A DNA stretch of 64,000 nucleotides, from assembly GCF_000024405.1 (NCBI RefSeq), contig NC_013517.1:3813989-3877988 (forward strand), read 5' to 3'. The DNA comes from Sebaldella termitidis ATCC 33386 (GTDB lineage: Bacteria; Fusobacteriota; Fusobacteriia; Fusobacteriales; Leptotrichiaceae). The notes beneath the pieces were generated by a model. That model made no database searches and was not told where the DNA came from. It saw only the letters and a program-made list of their open reading frames with translations. Position numbers and translations under genes: made by a program. Positions within the stretch are counted from its first letter, which is position 1. Every line of letters starts with the position of its first letter. Below, piece after piece: positions 3,498-10,554 of this stretch.

Positions 3498-3722
3498 TCA
3501 TTTACACTTTATTACTTCCAGAAAAATCTTTTTTAATGCTTCTGTAGTGCTTTTCAGATTATTTTCTTTTATATATTCATTAAGATTACTTCTCATTTCT
3601 TCATATTCATAGTCTTCTACTTTATATCCAAAAAATTTCTTTGGATTTTTCAATGTTTTTTTTCTGCCTGTAAAGACCCCATCTCCTGATTTTCTTCCGC
3701 TCTTGCCTTTTACTCCTGACAT
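3498..3722 (-). CDS. Small basic protein with GKSGRK N-terminus
   Basis: A 74-residue basic protein starting MSGVKGKSGRKSG. I place the start at 3722 because a strong GGGGAGG ribosome site lies 6 bases upstream of that ATG; an in-frame ATG 24 bp further upstream has none. Residues 1-35 are Lys/Arg/Gly-rich and probably disordered or DNA-contacting; residues 40-74 form an amphipathic helix pair (YEEMRSNLNEYIKENN, STTEALKKIFLEVIK) that could be a ribbon-helix-helix-like or dimerisation region. Similar GxKGKSGRK openings occur on small plasmid and phage DNA-binding proteins and some terminase small subunits, but the rest is too short for a family call. Probable remnant or cargo of a mobile element, with low certainty. 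Confidence 0.55.
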   Translation of the reverse strand: MSGVKGKSGRKSGDGVFTGRKKTLKNPKKFFGYKVEDYEYEEMRSNLNEYIKENNLKSTTEALKKIFLEVIKCK

Positions 3723-3821
3723 AATTTTCCTCCCCTGCTTTTTCAAATTATATCATTTTTAAAATAATTATGTAAATATCAATTAATATTCTGTCCCTAA
3801 ATACAGATTTTTATTGCAATT

Positions 3822-3850
3822 AAAAAGACTGTCTTAATAAAGACAGCCTG
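3822..3850 (-). terminator. Intrinsic terminator of candidate small RNA A
   Basis: Minus-strand stem AGGCTGTCTT / AAGACAGTCT with one G-U pair and a four-base loop, followed by five U residues. Confidence 0.7.
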
Positions 3851-4040
3851 AAAGTTTAAAATAAAATTTCTGGAGAGATTTCAGCACCCTGTTTTATACA
3901 GTCTTAAAAATAACTGCTAAGACCGGATGCGAGTGTTAATTACCTGTTGACTTTTTTCCCGACAGTATAAAGACTTTATTCCGATACTTTTAACCCAAAA
4001 AACTCCAATTTTTTAAATTATATAAATTTTTATACTGTTT
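3822..4040 (-). ncRNA. Candidate small RNA A (paralogue of the one at 10168-10381)
   Basis: Read on the minus strand, a -10-like TATTAT (4047-4052) sits 9 bp below a TTCACA-N5-TTCACA direct repeat (4062-4078). The transcript would begin near 4040 with a stem formed by CAGTATAAA-type arms (4029-4037 with 3963-3971), carry GGAGTTTTTTGG in the loop, contain UCUCUCC (3872-3878) and end in an intrinsic terminator at 3822-3850. It has no convincing ORF. The segment 3963-4079 aligns without gaps to 10304-10420, with about two thirds of positions identical by hand count. The upstream permease stops at 4094, so this could be its 3' tail, but the promoter-like signals argue for an independent RNA of about 215 nt. 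Confidence 0.45.
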
Positions 4041-4046
4041 GATATT

Positions 4047-4078
4047 ATAATACTACTCCTATGTGAAGACAATGTGAA
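4047..4078 (-). promoter_or_regulatory. TTCACA direct-repeat promoter A
   Basis: Minus-strand TTCACA hexamers occupy 4073-4078 and 4062-4067, exactly 11 bp apart, followed after 9 bp by TATTAT (4047-4052). Tandem hexamers with 11-bp periodicity upstream of a -10 are typical of OmpR/PhoB/PhoP-type response regulators. The same arrangement recurs at 10388-10419. Confidence 0.5.
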
Positions 4079-4093
4079 TAAAAAAAATATTTT

Positions 4094-5110
4094 TTATATT
4101 TTCATATCCCCTTGTTTTATAAGTCCAGTTTTTCTCATAATACCTGATACTAAAAGAGCTATTACCGCCGGAAATATAAAATGCAGAAGAAGCATGGGAA
4201 TAAGAGACTTTTCTCCCATCACTTCAAATGTAGTAAACTGCCCCACAAGACCGCTTGTACCCATTCCTGCACCTATTTTATTATTTTCCATTTTAAATAT
4301 TGCTGCACCTACTCCCCCGAGTATTACCGAAGCTGCCATCGGAGGAACCAGAATAAGGGGATTCTTTATACTGTTCGCCATCTGAAGCTTTGAAGTTCCC
4401 AGTCCATGTGAAATAAGACCGTTAAATCCGTTGTCTTTATATCCCGCCACTGCAAAGCCCACCATATGACAGGCACATCCTATAGTCGCAGCACCAGCCG
4501 ACAGTCCTGACAGACCTAGAGATATTGCCACAGCTGCGCTGCTTATCGGAGAAGTTATTATTATTCCCATTATTAATGCCACAAGAATTCCCATAGGCAG
4601 AGGATTTAGATTAGTAGATTTATTTATTATGTTTCCTATAAGCATCATAAATCTGCTGATATAGGGTGAAGCAAATATGCTTATCACACCGCCTGCTATG
4701 ATAGTAATTCCCGGAACAACAATAATATCACACTTGGTTTTTCCAAATACTGCTTTTGATGCAAGTGCTCCTGCCACACTGGCTGCAAGCGACCCTACCG
4801 GCTCTCCCGATGCCAGTATATATGAGCTTCCTCCGTATTTAATAGTTCCTGCACCGAGCATTCCGCATACTACAGATGCAAAAACTCCCAGTGGCGGTGC
4901 TTCCAGTGATAATGCCACACCTGCACCTATAGCCGGTCCCATCATATACTGTGCTACCTGCCCAAACATAATTAATTCCTGAATATTCAGATATGTTCCG
5001 ATCTGTTTCAGTATTACCCCTGTCACCAGTGACGCCATTAACCCAAGTGCCATCCCGTTCAAAATTTTTACCAAAGTATTGTTCAAAAATCCTGCTTCTT
5101 GTTTTTTCAA
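4094..5110 (-). CDS. PTS EIIC-like permease, candidate niacin-pathway transporter
   Basis: A 338-residue polytopic membrane protein of the PTS_EIIC_2 type (PF13303-like), with about nine or ten hydrophobic segments and many Gly/Ala-rich helices such as GMALGLMASLVTGVIL and MGPAIGAGVALSLEAPP. Members of this family often stand alone without EIIA or EIIB domains, and none is encoded here, so phosphorylation-coupled sugar import is doubtful. The start follows an AGGAGAAG ribosome site. The gene lies 30 bp downstream of niaR on the same strand. NiaR regulons are known to include uncharacterised membrane proteins thought to import niacin, so a role in nicotinic acid or nicotinamide uptake is a reasonable inference. 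A generic sugar permease remains the alternative. Confidence 0.8.
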   Translation of the reverse strand: MKKQEAGFLNNTLVKILNGMALGLMASLVTGVILKQIGTYLNIQELIMFGQVAQYMMGPAIGAGVALSLEAPPLGVFASVVCGMLGAGTIKYGGSSYILASGEPVGSLAASVAGALASKAVFGKTKCDIIVVPGITIIAGGVISIFASPYISRFMMLIGNIINKSTNLNPLPMGILVALIMGIIITSPISSAAVAISLGLSGLSAGAATIGCACHMVGFAVAGYKDNGFNGLISHGLGTSKLQMANSIKNPLILVPPMAASVILGGVGAAIFKMENNKIGAGMGTSGLVGQFTTFEVMGEKSLIPMLLLHFIFPAVIALLVSGIMRKTGLIKQGDMKI

Positions 5111-10146: not shown

Positions 10147-10167
10147 TTTATAATTATTATTTCTGTC

Positions 10168-10201
10168 AAAAAAAGAGGCTTGGCAGCTGCCAACCCCTTT
10201 T
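10168..10201 (-). terminator. Terminator of candidate small RNA B
   Basis: A near-palindrome with perfect core TTGGCAGCTGCCAA (10180-10193) is followed on the minus strand by a seven-U run (10174-10168). No minus-strand protein gene ends within 350 bp, which implies a separate minus-strand transcript. The plus strand has only a short T run, so it may also back up hydA termination. Confidence 0.7.
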
Positions 10202-10381
10202 AGGTGTAAATTTAGGAGATAAGGTTTCTCTTTCAGCTGTTTCAGTATTCTCACATAAATTCTGAAACATTCTCTTCAAAACCCTTTTTCTTGCATTTAC
10301 CCGCAGTATATAATACTATTTTCAAAACTTTTTACCAAAAACTCCCGGATTAACTACATTAACAAAAATATTATACTGCTT
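10168..10381 (-). ncRNA. Candidate small RNA B (paralogue of the one at 3822-4040)
   Basis: On the minus strand a TTCACA-N5-TTCACA repeat (10403-10419) and TATTAT (10388-10393) would start a transcript near 10381. It opens with a stem whose arms start CAGTATA (10372-10378 with 10304-10310) and whose loop holds GGGAGTTTTTGG. It includes UAUCUCCUAAAUUU (10208-10221), which could pair with AGGAGA-type ribosome sites, and ends in the terminator at 10168-10201. No credible ORF is present: the longest runs into the terminator and lacks a ribosome site. Spacing and order of all elements match candidate A. The nearest upstream minus gene (glycerate kinase) ends 175 bp before the promoter. Predicted length is about 210 nt. 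Confidence 0.5.
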
Positions 10382-10387
10382 ATATAC

Positions 10388-10419
10388 ATAATATTATTTC
10401 AATGTGAAAATAATGTGAA
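10388..10419 (-). promoter_or_regulatory. TTCACA direct-repeat promoter B
   Basis: Minus-strand TTCACA at 10414-10419 and 10403-10408, 11 bp apart, then TATTAT at 10388-10393, 9 bp downstream. Geometry is identical to 4047-4078. Confidence 0.5.
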
Positions 10420-10554
10420 TAATAAAAAAATTCTGCGTATATTTATACAGAATATGAACTAATTCTCTTTAAATATAAAAAAGAACTGTCTCAAAATATT
10501 TTTTTATTTCAATAATTTTATATCAAAATCTATTTTGAAGCAATTCTTTATATA

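What the first reader, a model, noticed from the sequence alone, without database searches (positions are those of the whole stretch)
3822..4079. Candidate small-RNA gene A, one of a pair of related intergenic RNAs
Seen: on the minus strand, TTCACA-N5-TTCACA, TATTAT, a CAGTATA stem-loop, a UCUCUCC segment and a U-tailed terminator occur in order within about 260 bp, with no ORF. The 117 bp from 3963 to 4079 align without gaps to 10304-10420 (78 matches by my hand count). Inference: a regulated trans-acting RNA of about 215 nt whose UCUCC segment binds ribosome sites. The A+T-rich background inflates identity, but identical element order and spacing are hard to get by chance.
Basis: partly seen in the sequence, partly recalled or inferred. 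Interest (0 to 1): 0.78.

Follow-up and report, generated by a model that had tools for sequence, protein, structure and literature searches.

The report
Twin stress-controlled small RNAs in Sebaldella
The window carries one of two related genes for small non-coding RNAs, found only in the bacterial genus Sebaldella, whose promoters carry the same control site as a set of cell-envelope genes and the sensor-regulator pair that probably controls them all.

Summary
The 117-bp pair shares 78 positions (dinucleotide shuffles: mean 40, maximum 59 in 2000) and A/B is the only such pair in the 4.49-Mb genome (blastn E=2.7e-11). A lies behind the same gene in all four Sebaldella genomes held; B is in two. 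Neither occurs in 92 other Fusobacteriales genomes. The RNA part is conserved in its own right: a 10-bp 5' stem with compensatory changes, GGAGUUUUU in its loop, a UCUCC element 52-59 nt before the 3' end, and a terminator.

The new result is the promoter. TTCACA-N5-TTCACA-N9-TATTAT is a genome-wide operator (45 sites against 5 for the reversed pattern). Of 23 other good sites, 19 precede secreted or envelope proteins (P=2e-9). One drives a ZraP/Spy-like gene, an OmpR-family regulator and a sensor kinase, an arrangement kept in all four genomes. A and B therefore look like the non-coding arm of an autoregulated envelope-stress two-component regulon, closely analogous to streptococcal CiaR csRNAs.

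That UCUCC blocks ribosome sites is plausible but not shown: target searches found nothing convincing. New member of a known kind.

The parts
4062..4078 (-). Operator TTCACA-N5-TTCACA of RNA A, in place of a -35 box
   Evidence: Read directly; motif enriched 45:5 over reversed control genome-wide
4047..4052 (-). -10 box TATTAT, 9 bp after the second repeat; predicted start near 4040
   Evidence: same spacing in 25 aligned sites
3821..4040 (-). RNA A, about 215-220 nt, non-coding
   Evidence: No ORF; conserved in four Sebaldella genomes; fold z -3.07
3962..4038 (-). 5' stem-loop of A: arms 4038-4029 and 3971-3962 (ACAGTATAAA/TTTATACTGT)
   Evidence: 96.7% of cells paired, two pairs with changes on both sides
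3996..4006 (-). GGAGTTTTTTG in the 5' loop, the most conserved loop sequence of A and B
   Evidence: GGAGTTTTT invariant in all six sequences
3872..3878 (-). UCUCUCC, candidate pairing segment (anti-Shine-Dalgarno)
   Evidence: UCUCC 52-59 nt from the 3' end in five of six copies (UCUCU in the sixth); P about 0.001
3821..3850 (-). Intrinsic terminator of A
   Evidence: 10-bp hairpin followed by U5
10403..10419 (-). Operator TTCACA-N5-TTCACA of RNA B
10388..10393 (-). -10 box TATTAT of B
10167..10381 (-). RNA B, about 213 nt, paralogue of A; convergent with hydA
10215..10219 (-). UCUCC element of B
10337..10345 (-). GGAGTTTTT in the 5' loop of B
4094..5110 (-). PTS EIIC gene upstream of A (synteny anchor in all four genomes)
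   Evidence: PF13303 E=1.8e-108; tblastn 76-96%

Best explanation
A and B are twin small regulatory RNAs transcribed from promoters in which two TTCACA repeats, bound by an OmpR/PhoB-family response regulator, replace the -35 box. The regulator is most likely the one encoded in the operator-driven ZraP/Spy-like gene - response regulator - sensor kinase operon at contig position about 1.238 Mb. When the kinase senses envelope stress it would switch on periplasmic and surface proteins (coding arm), its own operon (feedback) and the two RNAs (non-coding arm). The RNAs then most likely act in trans by base pairing without Hfq, through the UCUCC segment between the 5' stem-loop and the terminator, on Shine-Dalgarno regions of target mRNAs. 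Shown by sequence: paralogy, conservation, structure, operator, regulon content, genomic linkage of the regulator. Inferred: transcription, binding by this regulator, the stress signal, base-pairing mode and targets.
For: Only two copies in the genome, E=2.7e-11. A is in four of four Sebaldella genomes and B in two, with changing downstream genes. Stem covariation: two pairs changed on both sides, 96.7% of cells paired, against 20-63% when slid. Operator TTCACA-N5-TTCACA-N9-TANNAT: 45 sites against 5 for the reversed control; 19 of 23 other good sites precede secreted proteins against 23% background, P=2e-9. One site drives the ZraP/Spy-like - RR - HK operon, conserved with its operator upstream of the RR in all four Sebaldella genomes. 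In other Fusobacteriales the operator precedes ZraP/Spy-like genes and a TolC-like outer-membrane efflux gene. Spy-like assignment: profile hits the ZraP structure 3lay, E=4e-4, and ZraP NCBIfam, E=1.2e-8. UCUCC at a fixed distance from the 3' end. No Hfq over cut-off in 96 genomes.
Against: No transcript data. Only six sequences, so covariation rests on few events. No target found: 13-nt complements lie inside genes or fall near chance level, and duplex energies in 542 genes are not better for secreted proteins. UCUCC is partly paired in predicted folds, strongly so in G087 and G089, and is UCUCU in G089. The genome may hold other OmpR-family regulators that could use the same site.
Confidence: 0.7

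Rival explanations
1. The RNAs are regulator-controlled but do not act through UCUCC. The conserved 5' loop GGAGUUUUU is the active part, as a decoy for a protein or for other C-rich RNAs, or as a ribosome-binding mimic.
For: GGAGUUUUU is invariant in all six copies and lies in a closed stem-loop; no UCUCC target emerged.
Against: UCUCC is also held at a fixed distance from the 3' end. No candidate binding protein was tested; only Hfq was searched, and it is absent.
Confidence: 0.2
2. A and B are short mRNAs or decayed genes of the regulon: operator, then a Shine-Dalgarno GGAG and a tiny reading frame.
For: In true regulon genes GGAG and a start codon lie at a similar distance from the operator. 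GGAGUUUUUUG could be an SD followed by a TTG start.
Against: No reading frame is conserved: TTG-GGT-TAA in A, different frames in the other copies. The stem pairs through compensatory changes.
Confidence: 0.08
3. A is a 5' leader (attenuator) of the downstream gene at 3498-3746 rather than a free RNA.
For: That small gene is on the same strand about 75 bp downstream of the terminator.
Against: The downstream genes differ in other Sebaldella genomes while A stays. That gene has its own promoter-like sequence. B has no same-strand gene close downstream.
Confidence: 0.05
4. The similarity is only A+T composition or shared promoter DNA.
For: A+T about 66%; the promoter contributes much of the score.
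Against: Shuffles reach at most 59 of 117; RNA-only alignment exceeds all 1000 shuffles; orthologues in other genomes.
Confidence: 0.02

Closest known systems
CiaR-dependent csRNAs of Streptococcus (PMC3091779)
   Same: Several similar small RNAs driven by one OmpR-family regulator through a 6-N5-6 direct repeat about 10 bp before the -10 box; two stem-loops; unpaired anti-Shine-Dalgarno stretch
   Different: Repeat is TTCACA, not NTTAAG/TTTAAG; Gram-negative Fusobacteriota host; regulon is envelope proteins with a ZraP/Spy-like gene; RNAs longer; no targets known
FoxI and FoxJ of Fusobacterium nucleatum (PMC11005410)
   Same: Pair of envelope-stress RNAs in the same phylum, C-rich seed, no Hfq
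   Different: They depend on the sigma factor sigma-E; A and B carry a response-regulator operator. FoxI/FoxJ sequences were not at hand for alignment
OmrA/OmrB and other Cpx/OmpR-linked RNAs of E. coli (PMC6737893 lists cyaR, omrA, omrB, rprA, CpxQ; OmrA/OmrB details from own knowledge)
   Same: Twin RNAs with conserved ends and a divergent middle, placed under an OmpR-family regulator in an envelope response
   Different: No Rfam match to any such family; no Hfq in the order; the regulator falls below the CpxR and OmpR model cut-offs
CpxRA/CpxP and ZraSR/ZraP envelope stress systems
   Same: Periplasmic Spy/ZraP-like protein linked to a two-component system and under its operator
   Different: Here the Spy-like gene lies in line upstream of RR-HK on the same strand; regulator and kinase do not reach Cpx cut-offs

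Membership tests
CiaR csRNAs | NTTAAG-N5-TTTAAG repeat | tested here: not met
   Repeat is TTCACA-N5-TTCACA
CiaR csRNAs | 6-N5-6 direct repeat about 10 bp upstream of the -10 box | tested here: met
   N9 to TATTAT in A and B and across the site set; PMC3091779 used distance ten
CiaR csRNAs | Unpaired anti-Shine-Dalgarno segment between two stem-loops | tested here: inconclusive
   UCUCC is between the stems but only partly unpaired in predictions
CiaR csRNAs | Dependence on CiaR | not testable with these tools
   No expression data; regulator is an OmpR-family protein of Fusobacteriota
FoxI/FoxJ sRNAs | Sigma-E promoter | tested here: inconclusive
FoxI/FoxJ sRNAs | Sequence homology | not tested
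   FoxI/FoxJ sequences not retrieved; R1 model finds nothing outside Sebaldella
OmrA-B and other Rfam sRNA families | Covariance-model match at gathering score | tested here: not met
   Only tRNAs in the window
CpxR regulator | NCBIfam CpxR equivalog cut-off (341 bits) | tested here: not met
   125.9 bits; best models CseB, RpaB and PhoB also below cut-off
OmpR/PhoB-family response regulator | Receiver plus Trans_reg_C domains | tested here: met
   PF00072 E=9.2e-31, PF00486 E=2.5e-23
Spy/CpxP/ZraP periplasmic proteins | Family profile match | tested here: inconclusive
   Metal_resist below cut-off; alignment profile hits ZraP 3lay E=4e-4

The most novel reading that the evidence does not exclude
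Each RNA carries both a Shine-Dalgarno mimic (GGAG in the 5' loop) and an anti-Shine-Dalgarno (UCUCC) that can pair with each other, the neighbouring pair appearing to covary (U-A in A, A-U or G-U in B). The 5' loop would act as a built-in lock on the seed, or as a link between A and B, giving a self-gated envelope-stress RNA.
Probability: 0.12. Interest if true: 0.65.

Novelty: new member of a known kind. Interest (0 to 1): 0.5.

Why it matters
In Fusobacteriota the characterised envelope-stress small RNAs (FoxI, FoxJ) depend on sigma-E. This gives sequence evidence for a second route, a two-component system with a defined operator, a regulon of some 25 promoters and two RNAs, in an order without detectable Hfq. 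The operator makes the whole regulon testable, and it appears in other genera of the order upstream of ZraP/Spy-like genes.

Tried and rejected
Rfam scan: only tRNAs. One poorly built pattern found nothing. Complements of the B seed (TTAGGAGATAAGG, 1 mismatch) gave fewer hits than the reversed control, mostly inside genes or otherwise unsuited. The shared complement TAAATTTNGGAGA gave 113 hits against 86 in the control; of the 30 hits examined, the two exact matches other than B itself had no start codon following and the few near starts formed no coherent target set. Duplex energies on 542 genes from an 18% genome sample: no envelope enrichment, P=0.997 for A and 0.92 for B. Hfq as partner: absent. 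Leader of a downstream gene and AT-composition artefact: rejected. Structure prediction of the Spy-like protein was not run because its locus came from a route the tool does not accept.

Full report
Where it is. The window is part of a 4,486,650-bp genome in three contigs. The size, and the named MAGs that carry the same RNA, one of them a Sebaldella sp., point to Sebaldella termitidis; the species name is my inference.

Observation. The 117-bp alignment has exactly 78 matches, whereas 2000 dinucleotide-preserving shuffles average 40 and never exceed 59. Genome-wide, B is the only significant secondary match of A (E=2.7e-11). With the promoter removed, the RNA parts still score above all 1000 shuffles. 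The signal lies in the 5' stem-loop, and the region after the stem does not align significantly as a whole. Both RNAs fold better than all shuffles (z -3.07 and -3.56).

Conservation. A is present behind the same PTS EIIC gene in all four Sebaldella genomes (88-95% identity in two, 73% in the most distant). B is present in one further genome, 6.4 kb from A as here. In G087 the NuoE-NuoF-HydA genes and B are both missing between NiaR and glycerate kinase. A covariance model built from the six sequences found nothing else in 96 Fusobacteriales genomes. An exact pattern scan of 84,980 species genomes found only two records, one titled Sebaldella sp. and one Fusobacteriales bacterium, whose contigs match G087 and G089 in length. 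The family is therefore confined to this genus as far as these collections show.

Anatomy. From 5' to 3': two TTCACA repeats with an 11-bp period; 9 bp; TATTAT; a stem beginning at or next to the predicted start; GGAGUUUUU in its loop; a variable middle; UCUCC 52-59 nt from the 3' end (UCUCU in G089); a terminator. The 10-bp stem pairs in 96.7% of cells, with A-U to G-C and A-U to U-A replacements. The number of sequences is small, so this is support rather than proof. The UCUCC position has a chance probability of about 0.001 per sequence, and the 3' elements of the most distant A and of B align (P=0.001). No ORF is conserved.

Operator and regulon. The strict operator-plus-minus-10 pattern gives no reversed-control hits in this genome, and one across the 96 genomes of the order. 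With up to two mismatches there are 45 sites against 5 in the control. Of the 23 sites with at most one mismatch other than A and B, 19 are followed by a protein with a signal-peptide-like start, against 23% of a genome sample (P=2e-9; simple hydropathy rule, not a trained predictor). One of these drives an operon of a ZraP/Spy-like secreted protein, an OmpR-family response regulator and a sensor kinase. The operator, the ZraP/Spy-like gene and the regulator are kept in this order in all four Sebaldella genomes. In another genus the same operator stands before ZraP/Spy-like genes in several species, and in a third before a TolC-like outer-membrane gene. Weaker TTCACA/TTCATA repeats lie near some more distant regulator homologues. 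The regulator is not a CpxR by NCBIfam cut-offs, so 'Cpx-like' describes the logic, not membership. That this regulator binds the repeats is inferred from autoregulatory linkage and from the 11-bp repeat typical of its family; it was not tested.

Function. The most likely mode is antisense pairing by UCUCC to Shine-Dalgarno regions, as for the streptococcal csRNAs (PMC3091779) and the C-rich seeds of FoxI and FoxJ (PMC11005410). Hfq is not detected over cut-off in the order, in line with the report for F. nucleatum. I could not identify targets. Complement searches gave results at or near chance level, and in 542 genes from an 18% sample duplex energies were not better for secreted proteins. 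The idea that A and B repress envelope proteins is therefore an analogy only. The conserved GGAG loop is unexplained; it can pair with UCUCC in the same RNA, with an apparent covarying neighbour pair (read by eye from the sequences), but six sequences cannot decide this.

Verdict. A real, genus-limited pair of small RNA genes, very probably the non-coding arm of an autoregulated envelope-stress two-component regulon. Known in kind, new as a family and as a control route in Fusobacteriota.

Noticed in passing
L070 (G000:C1:1204683-1204714, +): Operator with one mismatch followed by no gene on its strand, a GGAGTTTTTTG motif and a terminator-like hairpin, in the intergenic region between a HydE-like gene and an AhpF-like gene (names from memory of the sequences): possible third small RNA of the regulon, or a decayed secreted-protein gene (TTG-AAG-AAA-AAA... 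stops after 10 codons).
   Followed up: partly
L093:3892-9247: Three small secreted, coiled, ZraP/Spy-like-looking proteins in tandem, each with its own operator, lie beside the ZraP/Spy-like - RR - HK operon.
   Followed up: partly
window:5945-10107: NuoE-NuoF-HydA operon (NADH-dependent [FeFe] hydrogenase, group A6) whose 3' end converges on RNA B; both are missing together from the G087 locus.
   Followed up: partly
L044, L045, L047, L049, L054, L055: The same TTCACA-N5-TTCACA operator precedes ZraP/Spy-like genes in another Fusobacteriales genus (g25).
   Followed up: partly
window:61245-61578: Cluster of four tRNA genes on the minus strand.
   Followed up: no
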